DNA of 64,000 nucleotides from Chloroflexota bacterium. GTDB taxonomy: Bacteria; Chloroflexota; Dehalococcoidia; GIF9; UBA5629. This document shows, piece by piece, positions 3,058 to 17,405 of this stretch; positions within the stretch are counted from its first letter, which is position 1, and each line of letters begins with the position of its first letter. The notes below the pieces were generated by a model. The model did no database searches. It was given only the letters and a program-made list of their open reading frames with translations, and was not told where the DNA came from. A program made the translations under genes and the position numbers. Location: the NCBI GenBank assembly GCA_016865855.1, contig VGNX01000001.1, positions 107,711 to 171,710 on the forward strand. Direction: 5' to 3'.

Positions 3058-4541
3058 TTGCTGACGATTTAGACGCCCTGCTTGGTGTCCTGCCACCCCA
3101 CATCCGCCAGGCGCTTCTTGAGCAACCTGACAACAGTGAATTAATTGAAGTAGTCCTTGATCTCGGACGTCCCCCCGAAGCCCGCTATCCGCAAAGGGAA
3201 ATAACCCTTAGCCCCAAAGAGGCCACAGACTCAGATATCAAGCATGTGGTCTCCCGCATCGGCAGCTTCAGCGGCGATAACCGCGCCGGCATCGAGCGCA
3301 CGCTCCATCGAATCTCGGCTATGCGCAACCGGGAGGGACGGATCGTTGGCCTGACCTGCCGCGTAGGCAGAGCTGTCTTCGGCACGGTGAAAATCATCCA
3401 GGACCTTGTCGAGTCAGGCAAAAACGTGCTGCTCCTCGGCCGACCTGGCATCGGCAAAACAACAATGTTGCGCGAAGTAGCCCGTGTCCTGGCCGATGAC
3501 TTCAAAAAGCGGGTAATCGTCGTTGACACCTCCAATGAAATCGCCGGTGACGGTGATATACCCCATCCCGCCATAGGACATACGCGGCGGATGCAGGTGC
3601 CAACACCGACCATGCAGCACGCAGTGATGATTGAAGCCGTGGAAAACCACATGCCCGAGGTCATTATTGTCGATGAAATAGGCACCAGCCTGGAGGCTGA
3701 AGCGGCTCGAACCATCGCCGAACGTGGCGTCCAGCTGGTCGGCACCGCCCACGGAAACAGCCTGGAGAACCTGATGATGAACCCTACTCTGTCCGACCTC
3801 ATCGGCGGCATTCAAACGGTGACCCTGGGAGACGAGGAGGCAAGGCGGCGGCATACACAGAAATCAATTCTGGAGCGCAAGGCACCGCCCACCTTCAATA
3901 TAGTTGTCGAAATCCAGGAACGAGATAGAGTAACTGTTCACCCGGACGTAGGCCAGGCCGTAGATGCTGTTCTTCACGGCAGACCCCAGGAAACCGAAAT
4001 CCGCTGGCTTGATAAAAACGGTGAAGTGAGAAAGGATAAGGCAACAGCTTCCCACGCCTTGAACAAGAAAGAGCCAATACCAAAGAGAGAAGAGTTTCGA
4101 ATATACCTTTTCGGCCTCAACCGCGCTAAGCTGGAAGAGGCTGCCAGAGAGAAAGGGATTACCCTAGAGATTACTAATGAGCTCAAGGGAAGCAACCTAT
4201 TACTTACCACCAAGAACTATTATCGCCGCAAACCGCAGAAGATAAGGGATGCCGAGATAGCCGGCATTCCCATCTATGCCGTCAAAAGCAACAACATTCC
4301 CCAATTGAGACAATGCCTTGACACTATATACGGGCCACACAAAGACACACCCATCAATTCCGCCATTGAAGAAGCCGAAAAAGCGATTACCCAGGTAAGA
4401 GAAGGCAAGGGGCCTGTAGAACTTAGCCCGCAGAATGCCTACATCCGCCGTTTGCAGCATCTCCTGGCCGAACGCCATAGCCTGGCTTCCCATAGCCTGG
4501 GCAAAGAACCAGGAAGAAGAGTACAGATTCTAAAAGGCTAA
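3045..4541 (+). CDS. R3H domain AAA ATPase (Ycf45/SpoIIIAA-like)
   Basis: Walker A GRPGIGKTTMLREVARVLAD, DTSNEIAGDGD, HAVMIEAVENHMPEVIIVDEIG. Confidence 0.85.
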   Translation: MQKVIADDLDALLGVLPPHIRQALLEQPDNSELIEVVLDLGRPPEARYPQREITLSPKEATDSDIKHVVSRIGSFSGDNRAGIERTLHRISAMRNREGRIVGLTCRVGRAVFGTVKIIQDLVESGKNVLLLGRPGIGKTTMLREVARVLADDFKKRVIVVDTSNEIAGDGDIPHPAIGHTRRMQVPTPTMQHAVMIEAVENHMPEVIIVDEIGTSLEAEAARTIAERGVQLVGTAHGNSLENLMMNPTLSDLIGGIQTVTLGDEEARRRHTQKSILERKAPPTFNIVVEIQERDRVTVHPDVGQAVDAVLHGRPQETEIRWLDKNGEVRKDKATASHALNKKEPIPKREEFRIYLFGLNRAKLEEAAREKGITLEITNELKGSNLLLTTKNYYRRKPQKIRDAEIAGIPIYAVKSNNIPQLRQCLDTIYGPHKDTPINSAIEEAEKAITQVREGKGPVELSPQNAYIRRLQHLLAERHSLASHSLGKEPGRRVQILKG

Positions 4542-4691
4542 AACAGCCTTTATTTTGTCGTAGGAGAGGCAAATCTTAAGAGGTGGTATGAATAGCTTAT
4601 GTAGGGACAGACCTTCAGGTCTGTCCGCTTTGGACAGGTCTAAAGACCTGTCCCTACATTTACTTTGCCTTCCCCTGGCAGGAGATAATCC

Positions 4692-5330
4692 ATGAGTCTA
4701 TTCATCACCTTTGAAGGCAGTGAAGGCTGCGGCAAGAGCACACAGGCCAAAGCCCTGTGGAGGAAACTTTCCCGGTTGAGCATCCCCGCAGAGCTGACTC
4801 ACGAGCCCGGCGGCACACCTCTAGGCAACCAGCTGAGACGCGTATTGAAAAGAAGACGCCATGATGAAATCTCACCCCTAGCCGAGATATTGCTCTTTGC
4901 CGCCTGCCGCATCCAACTGGTAACCGAAGTGATTCGCCCCAGCCTGCAGCAAGGCAAGGTGGTCATCTGCGACCGCTTCACCGACTCCACCATAGCTTAC
5001 CAGGGTTATGGTCGTGGGCTGGACCTGGAGACCATAAAAAAAATCAACGAGCTAGCTACCCAAGGAATCAAGCCCAACCTCACTATATTGCTGGACATCC
5101 CCACACAAAAAGGACTGGGCCGCAAGCAATCCACGACAAACGACCGCTTCGAGGCCGAAGACATCGCCTTTCACAACAAAGTAAGAGATGGCTACCTTAA
5201 GTTAGCCGCCCGTGAGCCTGAACGCTGGCTGGTGATAGATGCTACCTTGCCCAGAGCCAGAATTGGTAAAATTATCTGGGACAGGGTCAACCAACTACTT
5301 AACAAGCACCACCTATCATTGCAACCCTGA
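4692..5330 (+). CDS. tmk: Thymidylate kinase
   Basis: MSLFITFEGSEGCGKSTQ...DRFTDSTIAYQGYGRGLD. Confidence 0.95.
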   Translation: MSLFITFEGSEGCGKSTQAKALWRKLSRLSIPAELTHEPGGTPLGNQLRRVLKRRRHDEISPLAEILLFAACRIQLVTEVIRPSLQQGKVVICDRFTDSTIAYQGYGRGLDLETIKKINELATQGIKPNLTILLDIPTQKGLGRKQSTTNDRFEAEDIAFHNKVRDGYLKLAAREPERWLVIDATLPRARIGKIIWDRVNQLLNKHHLSLQP

Positions 5331-5522
5331 TCACAGAACATGTAGTGCGAGGCTTTAGCCTCGCCCGTAACCCAGCCCCAGGCGACCTTATAAGGTCGCC
5401 GCTACATGTGGGATAAGAAAGGGCGACCCTAAAGGGTCGCAACTACATTGGCTGGACTGAAAAATGTAGCGGTTAGAATGTCATTGCAAGCGAAGTGAAG
5501 CAGTCTCATTGTGGGTTTAAAA

Positions 5523-6587
5523 ATGTCTAAAAAGCGGGTAGCTGTAGCCTTAAGCGGCGGCGTGGACTCCTCAACAGCAGCTTTCCTGCTCCAGGAAGCT
5601 GACTACGAGGTCATCGGCCTGACCATGCGTTTGTGGCCTGAGGAGGAAGCAATGCCGGAGAAGCAGCGACATCCCTGCCCATCAACATCAAACATACGTG
5701 ACGCTGAGCATTTCTGCCGGACTCTCGGCATACCTTTTCACCTCCTCAATCTGGAGAACGAGTTCAAACAACATGTAATTGACTACTTCTGCCGGGAATA
5801 CAGTAAAGGCCGAACTCCGAACCCGTGCATTGCCTGTAATCGGCACATAAAATTCGGCTTCCTCCTCGACCAGGCTTTCTCTCTAGACGCCGACTATTTA
5901 GCCACCGGTCATTACGCCAGAATCGAGTACTATAACGACACCTATCATCTGCTCAAAGGCATTGACCCGGACAAAGACCAGTCTTACATGCTCTACACTC
6001 TGGGGCAGGACAAGCTCAGCCGCATACTCTTCCCTCTAGGCAACTACCTCAAAGCCAACGTCCGAGAGCTAGCACGACAAAAGGGCTTACCCACCGCCGG
6101 CAAGCCCAGCAGCCAGGACATCTGCTTCATCGCCTCGGACTACGGCGCTTTCCTCAGCCGGCATTTCACCCCAACCCCGGGACAAATCGTCAACAGTCAT
6201 GGCGAAGTGCTGGGCAGGCACAGGGGAACCGCCCTTTACACCGTGGGACAAAGGCGTGGCCTGGGGCTTATCGCCGCTGAACCGCTCTATGTAACAAAGA
6301 TAGAACCTGATAAGAACCAGCTTATCGTCGGCTCCAAACAAGAGCTTTACAACTCCAGACTCGCTGCCGGAGAAGTGAACTGGATATCCGGAAAAGCTCC
6401 TTCCGAGCCGATGACGGTGGCTGTTAAAATACGCTATCGGTCGCCGGAGGTAGCTGCCACCCTTTACCCGGCGCCGGACTCTGCCGAAGTAAGCTTCCAC
6501 CAGCCACAGCCTGCCATCACCCCGGGGCAAGCTGTGGTTTTCTACCAAGATAACGAGGTCCTAGGCGGTGGCACTATTGAAAGCTAG
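5523..6587 (+). CDS. mnmA: tRNA-specific 2-thiouridylase MnmA
   Basis: VAVALSGGVDSSTAA...GRTPNPCIACNRHIKFG...GHYAR; ATG at 5523 downstream of track start 5511. Confidence 0.95.
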   Translation: MSKKRVAVALSGGVDSSTAAFLLQEADYEVIGLTMRLWPEEEAMPEKQRHPCPSTSNIRDAEHFCRTLGIPFHLLNLENEFKQHVIDYFCREYSKGRTPNPCIACNRHIKFGFLLDQAFSLDADYLATGHYARIEYYNDTYHLLKGIDPDKDQSYMLYTLGQDKLSRILFPLGNYLKANVRELARQKGLPTAGKPSSQDICFIASDYGAFLSRHFTPTPGQIVNSHGEVLGRHRGTALYTVGQRRGLGLIAAEPLYVTKIEPDKNQLIVGSKQELYNSRLAAGEVNWISGKAPSEPMTVAVKIRYRSPEVAATLYPAPDSAEVSFHQPQPAITPGQAVVFYQDNEVLGGGTIES

Positions 6588-7227
6588 AAGCCGCAAACCT
6601 ATATCCGAGCTGCCAAGCTTGAACGAAGAAAATGGGCTTAGCGCCCGAGGCTATCGCCTCATCGCCGGCATAGATGAAGCTGGACGTGGCGCCTTAGCCG
6701 GCCCGGTAGTCGCCGCCGCTGTAATCCTGCCCCAATCACCCGACTTCCCCTGGTTAAAATCGATTCGAGACAGCAAAGAGATCCCGCCGGCCAGACGGGA
6801 GTCCCTCTTCGACCTGATCAAACAGGAGGCCATAGCTATCGGCGTCGGCATCATTGCTCCTCAAACCATTGATGTCATCGGCATTCTCAATGCCACCAAA
6901 GTTGCCATGTGCCAGGCCGTGGAGCAGCTAGCCTGCCCGCCCGACTTCCTGCTAATAGACTACCTGCGCCTGCCTCAGCTTCGCATCTCCCAAAAACCGA
7001 TAGTCCGGGGCGACAAATTATGCCTCTCCATCTCCTGCGCCTCGATTATCGCCAAGGTCAGCCGTGACCGCATTATGGTAGAGCTTGACCAGCTTCATCC
7101 CGGTTACGGCTTAGCCCATCACAAAGGCTATGGCACCAGGGAGCATGTCAGTTGTTTGCATCAGCGGGGCCCTTCGCCCATCCACCGCCATTCCTTCGCC
7201 CCGGTAAGAGAGGCAGCCCAAATATAA
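6568..7227 (+). CDS. rnhB: Ribonuclease HII
   Basis: [23 protein letters not shown]...[14 protein letters not shown]...GYGTREH. Confidence 0.95.
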
Positions 7228-7883: not shown

Positions 7884-7986
7884 CCCACAAACACACTAAC
7901 ATACTAAGCAGTGCTCGTTGATACCTAACATGCAGTAAAAACCGCTCCTCTACAGACTTGACTCCAAGGCAAGGCTATCTTATAAT
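7849..7986. repeat. Direct repeat copy 1: yraN 3' end, 3' UTR and promoter (matches 8784-8924)
   Basis: gagaacgccgtcagccaagattagcccacaaacacactaacatactaagcagtgctcgtt near-identical in both copies, continuing into a TTGAC..N17..TA-AT promoter. Confidence 0.9.
7958..7986 (+). promoter_or_regulatory. Sigma70-like promoter of the MNT-HEPN operon
   Basis: TTGACT-N17-TATAAT (7958-7963, 7981-7986). Confidence 0.75.
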
Positions 7987-8014
7987 TCACACGGATGAAC
8001 ATTTATTCACGTCG

Positions 8015-8545
8015 ATGAATCTTGCGGACCAAATCTCAATACGAATACTGGCTGCCATAGCCGAAGACATTGAGCGAGAATACTACCAGCGCGAGATAGC
8101 CAGGCTGGCCGGGATCAGCATCGGTGCCACGAGCCAGAAACTGCGGAAGCTCTCTGAGGGTGGTTTGGTGAACTCGAGGAAATCCGGCAAGATGATGTTC
8201 TACCGCTACAATCTAGAGGATCCTGTGGCAAAGCAGTTCAAGATACTCTTGAACGTGAATGCAGTCCATGGGATGGTTCAAGAACTGAGAGATTATGCCA
8301 GGCGGATCATACTATTTGGCAGTTGTGCCGAAGGCACGAATACAAAAAGAAGCGACATAGACCTGCTAGTGATTAGTGAAGCCGGCAAGAGGGTGAGAGA
8401 CACAGCCAGTAAATATGCTTCGAAACTGGACAGAAAAGTGTCTCCTGTGGTAATGAACGCCAATGAATTCCGCCAATTACGTTCAAAAGACAGACCTCTA
8501 TACGAAAGAATCAGCAAAGGGATCGTATTATGGGAGAGCCAGTAA
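8015..8545 (+). CDS. Winged-HTH plus MNT-type nucleotidyltransferase (antitoxin-like)
   Basis: YYQREIARLAGISIGATSQKLRKLSEGGLV (wHTH) and RRIILFGSCAEGTNTKRSDIDLLVIS (GSxAxGxxxxxSDIDLLV). Confidence 0.85.
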   Translation: MNLADQISIRILAAIAEDIEREYYQREIARLAGISIGATSQKLRKLSEGGLVNSRKSGKMMFYRYNLEDPVAKQFKILLNVNAVHGMVQELRDYARRIILFGSCAEGTNTKRSDIDLLVISEAGKRVRDTASKYASKLDRKVSPVVMNANEFRQLRSKDRPLYERISKGIVLWESQ

Positions 8546-9752: not shown

Positions 9753-12491
9753 TCACGGATTTTCAGCCACATCATCCGTAAATGCCCATAGCATCCCGCA
9801 TTCTCGTGCAGCCTTAATACCCCCAAAACCTGCACTCGCATTATGATTATTGGCATAACAATTGTTGTCGATAGCATACAAGGTGATTTTCATACCGATA
9901 ATCAGGCCACCACAACACTTCAGCGAAGATGGCTCTGTGGTAAATTGAATTCCTTTACCATTCACTTGGGTGAATGTTTTTAAACATTCCCAACAAATCC
10001 CGGGTTTAGGCACGCCTTCGTAGCGGTCCCGTGTACGGCAGACTCCACTACTCTGCCCAACCATGCCGTGCGCTGAATATAGATCTTTAGTGGATAAAGC
10101 AGATTGCAAGCCATAATAACCACCGAGCCCGTATGGTGATGCAGCGCTGTAATATTTGCCGTGAGCTCCATTTACAGGATTCATAATGTCAGTGTCCACC
10201 CATCTCCTATAGACTGGAATGGTTTGACGATAAATTGACCCGTTGCTACCTATTGAGCCATCATCCGCAACGTATATAATATTGTTATTTTGAAAGTCTG
10301 GGTCGAAAGCTACATGGACATTGCCCTTGGTTGGCAGTTGGTCAGGAATTACCTCCCAGGAATTGCCGTGATTAAGTGAGAAAGCTATAGGATACGCTAT
10401 TAGATTATTAGCACGAGCTGCACCAATTAAGATTTTGCCCCCCGGGTAGGCGGCGATAGTGTGAGCATTTTGGATATGTGCATTACTGCTTGGCAAACTG
10501 GTTGCCCAAGCGGTTTCTGTATACGGCATCTTCTGCACCAACCCATCTGGTGTCAGGTTGTACAGGACAGTTCTGGACTCGAAACAGAAGTCTTGGATGA
10601 TCTCCCTGGGTACTATTATTGCCCAGTATTCACCGAAATCAGGGGACCATGCCTGTGCTTTGGTATATTGAGCTGCCCAAGCCACAATTTGACCAGTAGG
10701 GTCCATACCATATGGAACTGTCCTTAGGAGCGCCAAGTTACTTTGTATCTCATCGCATGAAACTGCAGTAACACGTGTTAATACCCTCTCCCAGTAAGTA
10801 CCAATAGGCAGTGCTGGTAATGGCGATGTCACATCTGCATTGGAGCTGGAGCGCCAAACGCTGTCGAAACCTTGAGACCCAGCATTGGTATTAACTGATG
10901 CTAGATACACAGTTTTACCATCGTCAGATAGAGCAACATCAGTTAGCTTAGCCACAAAAGTATTAATTAGACTCAATTGGTTCCAGGTTTCTCCATTGCT
11001 GCGGCTTATGCTAAAGGCTGCCTCATCGAATGGAACCACATTAACATACCCGGCCGGCCATGCGGTCGCAATATTGACTGCTCCATTGTTAACAGCAGGC
11101 ACAGCCCAAGGTCCAAGACTTGCTGCACCAGTAGCGGCATAAGCAAGTCTACCGTCGGGCGACCAAGCGACCTTAGCATTACCATAACCCAAGATATACC
11201 CTTTGGAAGAACCCACAACTTGCCCTGCAGCCCCAGTTGTAGGCTTCAGGGCTGGATACCAGCAAGGTATTGGGTAGTCAGTAGGCGAGTCAGTAAACCA
11301 AGTTGGCACGGTAGCTAAATTACCATATCCTAAGACATCGCCCACAAGGAGCTTACCAGAAGTACATGTGCCAAAATAGGCAATACTGGCAGTACGTCTT
11401 AGTAAAGTATGAGTATTATCCATCAGAGTGCGTATAAGTTTATTATCAATTCGATATACACCACGATTGGTTGTTATATTCGGTGAATTTTGGACAGCAT
11501 CAGTGCTAACATAAAAGCGCCGAAGGTTAGCATCATCTCCAGAAAAATCGGATGGAAGTTCTAAATTGGCTATTATTATCTCATCCACCCTGGGGGAACT
11601 GCCCAGATTATTATCTGCATTCCTGATCTTAACATGGTCTGCATGTTCCTGCCAGAGAGTAGCGTTCTGTTCAACATCATGAATGCCGGTAGCGAGCCAA
11701 GTGCCTGCGTGTTCCGGAGTACCATCACAGCAAATGACTACGATGGTGCGATCATTAGGAAAGTTCGGTGAAAATTTGGCAGCTACTATATCACCAGTCA
11801 ATTGACTAGTCGAAGCTGACACGGTTGAACCAGCACATTGTATCTTCCACTGACGGTGTCCATCTAGTCTCATAATTTGCAGATTGTTTGTGTCAAGTCC
11901 ACTGCCATCTCTTGTACCAACAAGTATCTCACGACTGCCAAAGTCCCTAGAGATGTCGACAACACTAATCAGATCAGTGCCTGCTGTGATACCTGACGGA
12001 GGCCATCTTGTACTTTCCCATGTGTCGCCCTTATCGGTTGAGATCCATACCCGCTGAAGTAATGGATCCACACTAATATCTGCACAAGCAACAGCAACAA
12101 TATTAGGGTCATCAGGAGCAATAGCCAAATCCCAGATAAGAGTTCCGCTTTCTATACTTGATTGTACATTGGCAAGCTTCAAGTACTCCATATCAGTCCA
12201 GCTTATACCACCGTCTATAGACCTATACAACATAACTTGGGCGCCCCCCTGATTGATACCATTGCGGTCACCACGCCTGACAACTGCCCATATTGTCATT
12301 CCATCGCAGGCAACGGCAATTTTGTTTATTGCAGCCCCTTGATTGCGAGGATTTAGAAGTTCTTTCGTTGATGAAGGTATAGAGTCTGGGGTATCGAAAA
12401 TAGTCCATTGGGGTCCAACAGTGGATACCTGTGCTGGGTAAGGCTTGACTTCCTCCGGTGTCTTCTTGACCTGGATTGCGATTTGAGGCAC
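9753..12491 (-). CDS. Asp-box (BNR/sialidase/sortilin-like) beta-propeller protein; probably the C-terminal part of a frameshifted DUF4062 fusion
   Basis: Repeated Asp-box motifs SIDGGISW, STDKGDTW, SRSNGETW, SLNHGNSW; open frame extends upstream of GTG 12491 into the T7 tract. Confidence 0.75.
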   Translation of the reverse strand: MPQIAIQVKKTPEEVKPYPAQVSTVGPQWTIFDTPDSIPSSTKELLNPRNQGAAINKIAVACDGMTIWAVVRRGDRNGINQGGAQVMLYRSIDGGISWTDMEYLKLANVQSSIESGTLIWDLAIAPDDPNIVAVACADISVDPLLQRVWISTDKGDTWESTRWPPSGITAGTDLISVVDISRDFGSREILVGTRDGSGLDTNNLQIMRLDGHRQWKIQCAGSTVSASTSQLTGDIVAAKFSPNFPNDRTIVVICCDGTPEHAGTWLATGIHDVEQNATLWQEHADHVKIRNADNNLGSSPRVDEIIIANLELPSDFSGDDANLRRFYVSTDAVQNSPNITTNRGVYRIDNKLIRTLMDNTHTLLRRTASIAYFGTCTSGKLLVGDVLGYGNLATVPTWFTDSPTDYPIPCWYPALKPTTGAAGQVVGSSKGYILGYGNAKVAWSPDGRLAYAATGAASLGPWAVPAVNNGAVNIATAWPAGYVNVVPFDEAAFSISRSNGETWNQLSLINTFVAKLTDVALSDDGKTVYLASVNTNAGSQGFDSVWRSSSNADVTSPLPALPIGTYWERVLTRVTAVSCDEIQSNLALLRTVPYGMDPTGQIVAWAAQYTKAQAWSPDFGEYWAIIVPREIIQDFCFESRTVLYNLTPDGLVQKMPYTETAWATSLPSSNAHIQNAHTIAAYPGGKILIGAARANNLIAYPIAFSLNHGNSWEVIPDQLPTKGNVHVAFDPDFQNNNIIYVADDGSIGSNGSIYRQTIPVYRRWVDTDIMNPVNGAHGKYYSAASPYGLGGYYGLQSALSTKDLYSAHGMVGQSSGVCRTRDRYEGVPKPGICWECLKTFTQVNGKGIQFTTEPSSLKCCGGLIIGMKITLYAIDNNCYANNHNASAGFGGIKAARECGMLWAFTDDVAENP

Positions 12492-12579
12492 CTCCGGCCA
12501 GCAAGCGAAGTTTTGAATGATCCATTGATAAAGGAATGGTCTAAATTTTCCCTCCCACTCTTCTGGACTCCCATATTCG

Positions 12580-13071
12580 TCATAAAAAAACTTGTTTTCG
12601 CTCTCTATTCTGTTTCTGACAGTCGCGAACCTTTGTTAGCTGTTCATCCGCACTTCCAGTTAATTCATCAGGGATATGACGCAAGTAAAGAACGATTTCA
12701 GGCCTGCCTCCATTCTTGTCATTTAGAGAGTTTGCAAGTTCAAACTCCTCCTCAAAACCCGAACTATATTTGCCTGTTGGTCTACCCCACCGTTTCCAAA
12801 GAAGCAAGACGACAAGGTCGCAGTCCCTAATATCCTCATTGATTCTGTCTTGCGGACGCACTTTTCCTCGTAATGCATCTTCCCAACCTACTGGAACTAT
12901 TTGTATTCTCATATTATCAGCTAATGACTTGTTGACTTCGGCAACAACATTGACAAAACGCCGCCGTTCTTCACTAACATCGGACGGCGAACCAATAAAT
13001 ACTTTGACTACTCCACGGTAATTTTCCATTCCAGATGCCTTTGTGTTATTGCTTGATGCAAACTTGCTCAA
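12580..13071 (-). CDS. DUF4062 (TIR-like) domain protein, N-terminal part of split gene
   Basis: VKVFIGSPSDVSEERRRFVNVVAEVNKSL...RINEDIRDCDLVVLLLWKRWGRPTGKYSSGFEEEFELA. Confidence 0.85.
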   Translation of the reverse strand: MSKFASSNNTKASGMENYRGVVKVFIGSPSDVSEERRRFVNVVAEVNKSLADNMRIQIVPVGWEDALRGKVRPQDRINEDIRDCDLVVLLLWKRWGRPTGKYSSGFEEEFELANSLNDKNGGRPEIVLYLRHIPDELTGSADEQLTKVRDCQKQNRERKQVFL

Positions 13072-13269: not shown

Positions 13270-13540
13270 GCAAAGCTCGGTTGCCTCGTACGAGCCATGC
13301 TGCTTAAGGTTTGTGTCTCCCAAAGTTCGGAGCAGCCGACCCTACTTAACACCATACCTCTCGATGAGCCTGCGCAGTCCGTCTTTGCCAATTCCTGTCT
13401 GTTTCTCGCTGAGTATTGCTGATAATGTGCCATCCGGAAGCGAGGCACGCATTTCAGGTACAAATGTGACCCTTGTCCGCCTAGAAGGCATTCTCTTGGT
13501 CAAACACCTGCCGTGTTTTGCCTTTCTTCTTGGTATCCAA
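13270..13540. repeat. Copy A of ~235-bp duplicated unit encoding a 67-aa ORF on - (13342-13545)
   Basis: Near-identical to 14987-15230 with few substitutions. Confidence 0.9.
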
Positions 13541-13726: not shown

Positions 13727-13794
13727 CTCTTTCTAATTTCTGCTATAATTTAATTGAGCTTTTATATACGGCTACAGTCGTGGGGAGGATATTT

Positions 13795-14007
13795 ATGAAG
13801 TTTGCTATTACTTTTGAGCAAGACGAGGACGGATATATCGTGGTCAGTTGCCCGGCTTTACCTGGATGCCACTCGCAAGGGAGAACTAAGGAAGAGGCTA
13901 TTGCCAATATCAGGGAGGCTATCCAGGCATACATAGGCAGCATGCGGAAACATGGGGAGCCAATTCCCTCTATCACCGAGGTGGAAGAGGTGGAGGTAGC
14001 GGTCTAA
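13795..14007 (+). CDS. hicB: HicB family antitoxin
   Basis: MKFAITFEQDEDGYIVVSCPALPGCHSQGRTKEEAIANIREAIQAYI. Confidence 0.93.
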   Translation: MKFAITFEQDEDGYIVVSCPALPGCHSQGRTKEEAIANIREAIQAYIGSMRKHGEPIPSITEVEEVEVAV

Positions 14008-14232
14008 GTGGCTCGCCTCCCTGTGATATCAGGAGATGTTTTCGTTAACGCAATGCGTAGGATTGGATATGCCTGGGACCATACTGAAGGAAGTCACATG
14101 ATTTTGCTACACCCGTCAAGGGGCAGGCTCTCAGTGCCAAGGCATAGAGAATTAGGCCGAGGATTATTGAGAGCTTTAATTAGAGACGCTGGCCTATCGA
14201 GAGAAGAATTTATGGCATTAATGCGAGACTAG
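14008..14232 (+). CDS. hicA: HicA family toxin (mRNA interferase)
   Basis: VNAMRRIGYAWDHTEGSHMILLHPSRGRLSVPRHRELGRGLLRALIRDAGLSREEF; GTG start directly after hicB stop. Confidence 0.93.
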   Translation: MARLPVISGDVFVNAMRRIGYAWDHTEGSHMILLHPSRGRLSVPRHRELGRGLLRALIRDAGLSREEFMALMRD

Positions 14233-14331: not shown

Positions 14332-14964
14332 TCAGAATGTTTGGCTGCCGTCCAAAATGGTGTTATCTATTTCCTTGATCCTCTGGATGGCCCTATCTCT
14401 CTCCTCACGCATGATACGCACCACTTCGGATGTATGTCTTTCAGCGTCACAGGCCAGTTGTTCGAAGCTGGTAACCGATCGATCGTGGCCTTTTGTTAAT
14501 GAGTTGTACCCGGACTTGACCTCTTCCACGAGTTTATTAACTTCTCCGTATGGCAGTGACGTGTCACCAGCAACGATTGCATCGCAATGTGCTAGATGTG
14601 TGTCTCGGTAGCGCTTCAACCTTGTTAGTAAACTATCGCTATCATTAATCTTCTGTTCTATGTCCTTCAATTCATTTTCCGTGGCATGGGGTGTCAGGAT
14701 TGGTCGATTTTCATTTGCCGCAGTGAGTAAGTTCCTTAAACTTATTGTCTTTGAATGCTTGTCAAAGACCTTAGCGAACTGCATAAGTGCCTGTGACTGC
14801 AGGGCAATCTGCGCAGGTAAGAACAGGCCTCTGTAGCGATTCAGTGCTTGAGCCGAATCTTCATCCGCAACCGTCAGGTTACGCCAGGCTGAGAAGTATG
14901 CGATGCCATCAGCGATGATTTTCCCTAACTCGACTAGTTGACGCTTGAACTCTTGAGGTTCCAC
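14332..14964 (-). CDS. HEPN-domain protein, AbiU2-like
   Basis: Helical protein with LKRYRDTHLAHCDA (RX4-6H HEPN motif) typical of AbiU2-type HEPN. Confidence 0.55.
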   Translation of the reverse strand: MEPQEFKRQLVELGKIIADGIAYFSAWRNLTVADEDSAQALNRYRGLFLPAQIALQSQALMQFAKVFDKHSKTISLRNLLTAANENRPILTPHATENELKDIEQKINDSDSLLTRLKRYRDTHLAHCDAIVAGDTSLPYGEVNKLVEEVKSGYNSLTKGHDRSVTSFEQLACDAERHTSEVVRIMREERDRAIQRIKEIDNTILDGSQTF

Positions 14965-14986
14965 GTCGGTTGCCTCCTACAGCGAT

Positions 14987-15235
14987 GCTGCTTAAGGTTT
15001 GTGTCTCCCAAAGTTCGGGGCAGCTGACCCTACTTAACACCATACCTCTCGATGAGCCTGCGCAGTCCGTCTTTGCCAATTCCTGTCTGTTTCTCGCTGA
15101 GTATTGCTGATAATGTGCCATCCGGAAGCGAGGCACGCATTTCAGGTACAAATGTGACCCTTGTCCGCCCAGAAGGCATTCTCTTGGTCAAACACCTGCC
15201 GTGTTTTGCCTTTCTTCCTGGTTTCCAGCCATCTT
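14987..15235. repeat. Copy B of ~235-bp duplicated unit with ORF 15030-15278 (-)
   Basis: tgctgcttaaggtttgtgtctcccaaagttcgg... shared with 13301 onward. Confidence 0.9.
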
Positions 15236-15448: not shown

Positions 15449-15802
15449 TTAACAGGTGATTCCGGTAGGAATGCGTTGAATGCGAGGCCGAATAAATTCG
15501 TCTGAATCAGCAGAGACGCGAATCTGGATTTCTTGTGTGGGTCTGGTACGATAGAATTGTATCTTGTGGTCTTTAAAGAAACGCTCCCGTTCGCCAACAT
15601 CCTCAAGCGTATTCAAGTGACACCATATTGCTTCTTGGAGCCTTTCATCAGCCTCAATCAAAGTGCGCCCGAATGTTGATGTCCCAAGTTCATCGCAAAG
15701 CGCAACCCACTTCCTGCCCTCTCTATAAAACTTATGAGTTAAAATTATGTATCCTTCCATCTGTCCTGCATTTGTACCAGACATGACCACTTCTGCTTTC
15801 AT
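15449..15802 (-). CDS. HicB-like small protein, orphan
   Basis: [68 protein letters not shown]; start placed at internal ATG. Confidence 0.45.
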
Positions 15803-15920
15803 TGTTACCTCTCCACACCAGTGTATAGCACCCGTCAATACTTTTCCACCGCACACAGAATCTAAATCAGTCAAGCTCGTTTGCCTCGTGCCGAGCCATG
15901 CTGCTATACTAACCGATGTT

Positions 15921-17405
15921 GTGGAATACGAGATTGTCATTGGGCTGGAAGTACATGCTCAACTGCTGACCAAGAGCAAGATGTTCTGCTCCTGCAGCGC
16001 TGAGTATGCCAGCACTCCACCTAATACTCACGTCTGCCCCATCTGCCTGGGCATGCCCGGCGTTTTGCCGGCAATCAACCAGAAGGCAATAGAATATACC
16101 GTGATGACCGCCTTAGCCCTTAACTGCACCATCGCCGAATATGCCAAGTTCGACCGCAAAAACTACCCTTACCCCGACCTGATGAAAGGCTACCAAATAT
16201 CCCAATACGATGCCCCCATGGGTAAACAAGGCTGGCTAATTATTGATATGGATGGAAACAAAAAGAGGGTCGGCATCACCCGAGTTCACCTCGAAGAGGA
16301 TGTTGCCAAGCTGACCCACTGCACCTCACCTGAGGGTGAAAGCTACAGCCTGGTGGACGTCAACCGCTCCGGGGTGCCATTGATGGAAATCGTCGGCGAG
16401 CCGGATATCAACTCACCGGAGGAAGCCAGGCAGTATCTGATGAAGCTGCGCTCTATTCTCCAGTATCTGGGCGTGTCAACAGGCAACATGGAGGAGGGAA
16501 GCTTCAGGTGTGATGCCAATATCAGCATTCGTCCCAGAGGTACCACTGACTATCTGCCCAAGGTAGAGGTCAAGAACATGAACAGCTTCAAAGCCGTATA
16601 CCGGGCTCTGGACTATGAAGCTAAACGCCAGCAGGAGGTGCTGGAAAAAGGCGGCAAACTTGTACAGGAGACGCGGGGCTGGGTGGAGCCAAAAGGGGTA
16701 ACCGTGAGCCAGAGGAGCAAGGAATATGCCCATGACTACCGCTACTTTCCTGAACCTGATTTGCCACCTTTGGTCTTCAGCCAGAGATGGGTGGAGGAAA
16801 TCGGGGCACGCTTGCCTGAGCTGCCTGATGTCAGACGAGACCGCTTCCTGTCTCAGTACGGTCTGCCGTTATATGACGCCAGCTTGCTCGTCGAGTCCAA
16901 AGCGATGGCCAACTACTTCGAGGACTGCGTCAAATTGATGGCAAGCTCTTCAGATGGAGCTGACCTCTCCAAGAGGGCAAAGACAGTAAGCAACTGGCTG
17001 CTGGGAGACTTCAGCCGGATGCTAAATGCCACCAATACCAGTATCGAAGATGCCAAAGTCACCCCGAAGCATCTGGCAGAACTGCTAGATTTAACAGATA
17101 AGGGAACCCTCAGCGGCCCGGCAGCTAAAGCAGTTTTTGAAGACATGTTCCTCAGCGGTAAGAAAGCCGGTGCCATCGTGGCTGAGAAGGGGCTGAGCCA
17201 GATAAGCAGCTCAGAGGAAATAGAGAAAATAGTAGCCGAGGTAATAGCCGGCAACCGCCAGGCGGTGTCTGACTTCGAGGCCGGGAAACAGCAAGCCCTG
17301 GCTTTCCTCATCGGCCAGGTGATGAAGGCGACCAAAGGGCGGGCTAATCCCGGCGTGGCAAGGGAAATCCTGTTACATAAACTTGGAGGTAAACAGAATG
17401 ACTAA
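15921..17405 (+). CDS. gatB: Aspartyl/glutamyl-tRNA(Asn/Gln) amidotransferase subunit B
   Basis: [24 protein letters not shown]...[17 protein letters not shown]; start likely GTG 15921. Confidence 0.95.

What the first reader, a model, noticed from the sequence alone, without database searches (positions are those of the whole stretch)
9753..13071. DUF4062 (TIR-like) effector domain split by a T7 tract from a large Asp-box propeller: candidate new sensor-effector protein
Seen: on the reverse strand the DUF4062 ORF ends ...QNRERKQVFL* at a T7 run (A7 at 12584-12590 on +). Deleting one T gives ...RKQVFYDEYGSPEEWEGKFRPFLYQWIIQNFACWPEVPQIAIQVKK..., which runs without a stop into the 912-aa propeller ORF. 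One base therefore separates two ORFs from a fusion of about 1,100 aa. Established: DUF4062 is a TIR-like domain found at the N-terminus of NTPase and repeat proteins in prokaryotic conflict systems. Inference: here a DUF4062 domain is joined directly to an Asp-box propeller with no NACHT/NTPase and no visible signal peptide, suggesting an intracellular sensor-effector. The homopolymer suggests phase variation, transcriptional slippage, pseudogenization or a sequencing error.
Basis: partly seen in the sequence, partly recalled or inferred. Interest (0 to 1): 0.78.

Follow-up and report, generated by a model that had tools for sequence, protein, structure and literature searches.

The report
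Suicide-enzyme domain fused to surface propeller
In a group of uncultured Dehalococcoidia bacteria, a domain of a family that kills phage-infected cells by destroying NAD+ has been joined once to a copy of the bacteria's own cell-surface propeller protein; the copy in this window is split by a one-base frameshift, but a relative carries it whole.

Summary
DUF4062 (Pfam 1.6e-10) and a large Asp-box propeller lie in adjacent frames, separated by one base at a T7 run (12584-12590). A Dehalococcoidia genome of another genus (UBA1162, DBZK01000004.1) encodes the same protein as one intact 1,083-aa ORF, 45-50% identical throughout, with six T's at that site. So the fusion is real and the window copy is a disrupted allele; the frameshift also removes the last helix of the DUF4062 module.

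The propeller comes from a large family of cell-surface proteins in this order. Every family member with a complete N-terminus has a signal peptide, and nearly all those complete at the C-terminus a membrane anchor; the two fusions have neither. Both halves place the two fusions as sisters (100/100 and 88/87), so one fusion event is simplest. No NACHT/NTPase is present.

DUF4062 was recently shown to be a TIR-like NADase (Swarozyc, PMC13174449). Most likely this is a Swarozyc-type intracellular sensor-effector with a new sensor: a former surface propeller. NADase activity, trigger and phage defence are inferred, not shown. The window allele is probably inactive. New variant of a known kind, known from two genomes.

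The parts
12580..13029 (-). DUF4062 module, part in the first frame (likely start ATG 13027-13029; ORF listed from TTG 13071); ends in TGA right after the T7 run
   Evidence: start close to that of the intact ortholog
12733..13005 (-). Pfam DUF4062 domain PF13271 (residues 23-113 of the 163-aa ORF)
   Evidence: 1.6e-10, whole profile 1-82/82
12745..12753 (-). Glu triad of SSGFEEE (E107-E109 of the 163-aa ORF; E92-E94 in the ortholog); candidate NADase catalytic Glu at the start of a helix
   Evidence: (E92 invariant in alignment A3); a catalytic Glu of DUF4062 is known from PMC13174449, exact residue not mapped here
12584..12590 (-). T7 run; +1 frameshift site (six T's at the same site in the intact ortholog)
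12507..12587 (-). C-terminal end of the DUF4062 module (FYDEYGSPEEWEGKFRPFLYQWIIQNF, mostly the last long helix), now in the propeller frame
   Evidence: helix 153-180 of the ortholog model
9756..12440 (-). Asp-box propeller region (895 aa), related to the secreted surface-propeller family; no C-terminal Ig/TM anchor
12198..12221 (-). Asp-box motif SIDGGISW
12018..12041 (-). Asp-box motif STDKGDTW
10983..11006 (-). Asp-box motif SRSNGETW
10623..10646 (-). Asp-box-like motif SPDFGEYW
10356..10379 (-). Asp-box motif SLNHGNSW

Best explanation
The locus is one gene for a two-part intracellular protein. The N-terminal DUF4062 domain is a TIR-like NADase effector; the C-terminal ~870 aa are a large Asp-box propeller, possibly two seven-bladed propellers as in GH74 (weak evidence). 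The propeller was captured, most simply once, from the lineage's own family of secreted, membrane-anchored surface propellers: DUF4062 replaced the signal peptide and the C-terminal Ig/TM anchor was lost. Proposed mechanism: the propeller is the sensor (auxiliary) domain. When it binds a foreign, probably phage, macromolecule it brings DUF4062 domains together through the helix that joins the two parts, NAD+ is hydrolysed and the infected cell stops growing, as in Swarozyc. Shown here: fusion, single frame in a relative, sister relation of both halves, loss of secretion features, no NTPase, a conserved candidate catalytic Glu. Inferred: NADase activity, sensing, defence. The window allele carries a one-base frameshift inside the DUF4062 module and is most likely a recently inactivated copy.
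For: Intact 1,083-aa fusion in UBA1162/G014, aligned end to end, about 50% identical in DUF4062 and 45% in the propeller. The window frame after the shift starts with the missing DUF4062 end. Fusion propellers form one clade (100/100) and their DUF4062 domains too (88/87). All complete paralog N-termini have a strong hydrophobic signal segment and almost all complete C-termini a TM anchor; the fusions have neither. No NTPase hit, whereas several other long DUF4062 proteins of the class carry STAND/NACHT NTPases. PADLOC PDC-S60 (candidate defence) matches both fusions through DUF4062 (6.6e-19, 2.8e-25). Nearest DUF4062 domains are fused to TPR or TIR-TPR, more distant ones to HEAT. DUF4062 NADase and antiphage action shown in PMC13174449. 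Window neighbours: HicBA-like genes and an AbiU2 HEPN.
Against: Only two copies among 84 genomes of the order, and no more in a sample of 393 of the class. The intact copy stands among metabolic genes, with only a HEPN-like neighbour (below cut-off), not in a defence island. The catalytic Glu was not mapped residue by residue to KpSwz E97. Fold models of the propeller are poor (mean pLDDT 46-48). No expression or activity data.
Confidence: 0.55

Rival explanations
1. The frameshift in the window is a sequencing or assembly error at a homopolymer, and the gene is intact in the organism. (This concerns the window allele only; it leaves the fusion as described.)
For: The frame is otherwise clean over about 3.3 kb; the window propeller shows no sign of relaxed constraint: 47 window-specific against 143 ortholog-specific changes, third codon positions most divergent. 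The genome is an 84-contig draft.
Against: Seven other runs of 7-8 identical bases in the window lie within ORFs that stay open, so the assembly handles such runs.
Confidence: 0.25
2. The run is a phase-variable or slippage switch, so that cells make full-length protein only sometimes.
For: The difference lies exactly in the T run (T7 against T6 in the intact ortholog), and the downstream frame is preserved.
Against: Seven is short for efficient slippage (general knowledge); the run is not longer than others in the window; the ortholog shows no lengthened run. One assembly shows one state only.
Confidence: 0.12
3. Two working genes: a short DUF4062 protein and a separate propeller translated from an internal start.
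For: Both ORFs are long and could be transcribed together.
Against: The short DUF4062 protein lacks its last helix; the GTG start has no usable ribosome-binding spacing (sequence) and no counterpart in the ortholog; the ortholog is one ORF.
Confidence: 0.05
4. The fusion is real but not for phage defence: DUF4062 serves a regulatory or metabolic role and the propeller binds a cellular glycan or protein.
For: The intact copy sits among housekeeping genes; the propeller resembles carbohydrate-active GH74 folds (weak).
Against: Patchy, fast-evolving, NADase-family domain; close DUF4062 relatives are fused to TIR/TPR.
Confidence: 0.2

Closest known systems
Swarozyc (DUF4062 + auxiliary domain, K. 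pneumoniae KpSwz; PMC13174449)
   Same: N-terminal DUF4062 TIR-like domain followed by a helix and a C-terminal non-NTPase domain in one protein
   Different: The KpSwz auxiliary domain is a HTH/winged fold that binds phage portal; here it is a ~870-aa Asp-box propeller of surface-protein origin
TEP1 / NWD1 / NWD2 (DUF4062-NACHT, with WD40 repeats in several)
   Same: DUF4062 in one chain with propeller-type repeats
   Different: Those have a NACHT ATPase and WD40 repeats; the fusion has no NTPase and Asp-box repeats
PADLOC PDC-S60 (candidate defence, model of 906 aa) and DUF4062-HEAT / DUF4062-TPR / DUF4062-TIR-TPR proteins
   Same: Closest DUF4062 domains by sequence
   Different: Partner domains are helical repeats or TIR, not a propeller
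Secreted Asp-box propeller family of this Dehalococcoidia order (Vps10/GH74-like)
   Same: Homologous propeller, 34-48% identity
   Different: Family members have signal peptide, C-terminal TM anchor (and Ig-like domains where checked); the fusion has none of them

Membership tests
DUF4062 (PF13271) | Whole-domain profile match above curated cut-off | tested here: met
   window 41.4 bits, ortholog 30.6 bits, cut-off 24.7, profile 1-82
DUF4062 (PF13271) | Alternating beta/alpha TIR-like domain | tested here: met
   ortholog model: five beta/alpha units in residues 5-180, block pLDDT mostly 60-88; no TIR appeared among the listed PDB fold matches, which were dominated by the propeller
TIR-like NADase / Swarozyc | Conserved catalytic Glu (KpSwz E97) | tested here: inconclusive
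   Glu triad conserved, E92 invariant in alignment A3 (34 DUF4062 rows), but not mapped to E97 residue by residue
TIR-like NADase / Swarozyc | NAD+ hydrolysis | not testable with these tools
   needs a biochemical assay
TIR-like NADase / Swarozyc | C-terminal auxiliary domain like that of KpSwz (HTH/winged, portal-binding) | tested here: not met
   C-terminus is a mostly-beta propeller related to surface proteins
TIR-like NADase / Swarozyc | Phage protection by abortive infection | not testable with these tools
   needs a phage challenge
DUF4062-NACHT / STAND sensors | P-loop NTPase between effector and repeats | tested here: not met
   no NTPase hit up to E 0.1 in the ortholog
Secreted surface-propeller family | Homologous propeller | tested here: met
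   window against own-genome paralog 3.7e-182, 47% identity
Secreted surface-propeller family | Signal peptide and C-terminal TM anchor | tested here: not met
   N-terminal hydropathy maximum 0.6-0.9 against 2.1-3.3 in paralogs; no anchor
GH74-type tandem seven-bladed propellers | Same fold | tested here: inconclusive
   top Foldseek hits with probability 1.00 but TM 0.2-0.3 and low-confidence models

The most novel reading that the evidence does not exclude
An 'integrated decoy' in bacteria: an intracellular copy of the cell's own surface propeller, which phages may bind as receptor, is wired to an NADase so that newly made phage receptor-binding protein, or another phage factor that binds the surface protein, triggers cell suicide.
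Probability: 0.12. Interest if true: 0.88.

Novelty: new variant of a known kind. Interest (0 to 1): 0.52.

Why it matters
DUF4062 has only just been shown to be an NADase family used against phage, with one sensor mechanism solved (portal sensing). Here the same kind of effector is attached, without an NTPase, to a sensor with a traceable origin: a paralog of the host's own surface propellers. That gives a concrete hypothesis about what is sensed (ligands of the surface protein), and suggests that surface proteins can be recruited as sensors by losing their secretion signals. The intact ortholog makes this directly testable.

Tried and rejected
A MAFFT alignment with many short DUF4062 rows misplaced the window propeller and was discarded for A5/A7. 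No solved sequence relative of the whole fusion at E 1 and no solved DUF4062. Programmed -1 frameshifting was considered (T TTT TTA looks slippery), but the shift needed is +1. ATGA start/stop coupling was considered, but that ATG is not in the propeller frame. dS is saturated, so selection was judged from codon-position patterns and relative rates only. A phage portal (phrog_64) near secreted propellers in two IMG/VR contigs was followed, but the own genome has no match. Literature searches for a beta-propeller TIR sensor and for an integrated decoy in bacteria gave no clear precedent in the held papers (the hits themselves were not read in full).

Full report
What is in the sequence. On the minus strand a 163-aa ORF (12580-13071) carries a full DUF4062 domain (Pfam 1.6e-10, whole profile) and ends at a run of seven T's (12584-12590); the next frame is open from before 12596 to 9753. 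The propeller part has only weak Pfam hits (Sortilin-Vps10, BNR) but five Asp-box-like motifs.

Is it one gene? Yes. A search of relatives brought in a genome of another genus in the same family (G014; the same contig is DBZK01000004.1, Dehalococcoidia bacterium UBA1162) with one uninterrupted ORF of 1,083 aa that has DUF4062 at its start and the propeller after it. The two align end to end: 71/141 identical in DUF4062 and 414/917 in the rest. The first 38 residues of the window's second frame align with residues 143-180 of the ortholog, that is with the end of its DUF4062 module. In the ortholog the same site reads six T's in frame. The one-base shift in the window therefore breaks a pre-existing fusion gene inside its effector module: the model of the ortholog puts residues 145-150 in the last strand and 153-180 in a long helix, and that helix is lost from the first ORF. 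In KpSwz the last helices of the module intertwine the dimer and lead into the stalk (PMC13174449); that the two helices correspond is inference.

State of the window copy. There is no second lesion in about 3.3 kb. In a three-way comparison with a secreted paralog the window propeller has 47 private changes and the intact ortholog 143, and third codon positions are the most divergent. The propeller was therefore under constraint until recently. Seven other runs of 7-8 bases in the window lie in ORFs that stay open. I take recent inactivation as most likely, an assembly error as second, a switch as third; reads would decide.

Where the propeller comes from. The own genome has five more relatives, and 53 of 100 related genomes have matches, many with several copies. 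Of the 23 related loci examined besides the fusion, every one with a complete N-terminus has a signal-peptide-like hydrophobic segment, and nearly all that are complete at the C-terminus end in a TM anchor; L002 also has an Ig-like domain. Exceptions at the C-terminus are short or truncated ORFs (L006, L017, L025). The two fusions have neither segment. In the tree the fusion propellers form one clade (100/100). In a tree of DUF4062 domains the two are again sisters (88/87), beside DUF4062-TIR-TPR and DUF4062-TPR proteins of Myxococcota, archaea and Dehalococcoidia. Both halves thus tell the same story, a single fusion before the two lineages separated; transfer between them is not excluded. 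The branches of both halves are long.

How rare it is. Of 84 genomes of the order, nine have a DUF4062 above threshold and only these two have it on the propeller; a sample of 393 of the class adds none. In the class, several of the other long DUF4062 proteins that were scanned carry STAND/NACHT NTPases. A scan of about 85,000 genomes with the DUF4062 module found 47 relatives; the UBA1162 fusion is the only one of them with an ORF over 900 aa.

What it most likely does. DUF4062 was recently shown to hydrolyse NAD+ and to protect against phage when joined to an auxiliary sensor domain (Swarozyc, PMC13174449, a preprint); activity depends on one Glu and is triggered by the bound phage portal. 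The fusion has the same layout: effector, helix, C-terminal domain, no NTPase. The Glu triad SGFEEE is conserved, although I could not map it to KpSwz E97 residue by residue. PADLOC's candidate defence family PDC-S60 matches through the DUF4062 part. The window copy lies near HicBA-like genes and an AbiU2-type HEPN gene; the intact copy lies among metabolic genes with a HEPN-like ORF behind it, so the neighbourhood is only mild support for defence.

Sensor. Fold models of the propeller are poor (mean pLDDT 46-48) and their best matches are GH74 tandem propellers and Vps10 domains; this supports 'Asp-box propeller' and no more. Since the sensor descends from the cell's own surface proteins, a natural hypothesis is that it binds what binds those proteins, for instance phage receptor-binding proteins. 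Nothing here tests that.

Verdict. New variant of a known kind.

Noticed in passing
13293-13539 and 14981-15227: A 247-bp direct repeat (98% identical, only two copies in the genome) flanks a small cassette of HicB-HicA-like ORFs (13780-14232, +; named by eye) and an AbiU2-type HEPN gene (14332-14964, -); it may be a mobile or recombinogenic unit.
   Followed up: partly
L133:1-918 and 3878-5941; L134:298-1578 and 3827-6915: Two IMG/VR 'viral' contigs carry a secreted relative of the propeller and an Ig-domain/TM protein about 2-3 kb from a phage portal gene (phrog_64). Either host DNA beside a prophage, or a link between surface propellers and phage-like genes.
   Followed up: partly
L098:4617-6086: DUF4062 fused to a tyrosine recombinase (phage integrase, SAM-like and catalytic domains) in an Algicola sp. 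MAG: an odd effector-integrase combination.
   Followed up: no
L076:1624-3093, L082:4983-6572: Proteins with DUF4062, then a canonical TIR domain, then TPRs in one chain, in a deltaproteobacterium and a Methanophagales archaeon: two TIR-type domains in tandem.
   Followed up: no
15449-15940: A minus-strand ORF with a HicB-like look overlaps the 5' end of the ORF listed for gatB on + (15747); it has no Pfam match, and the gatB start is probably further downstream.
   Followed up: no
7958-8545: Winged-helix plus nucleotidyltransferase protein matching PADLOC candidate PDC-M05A (2.2e-27), close to the fusion.
   Followed up: no
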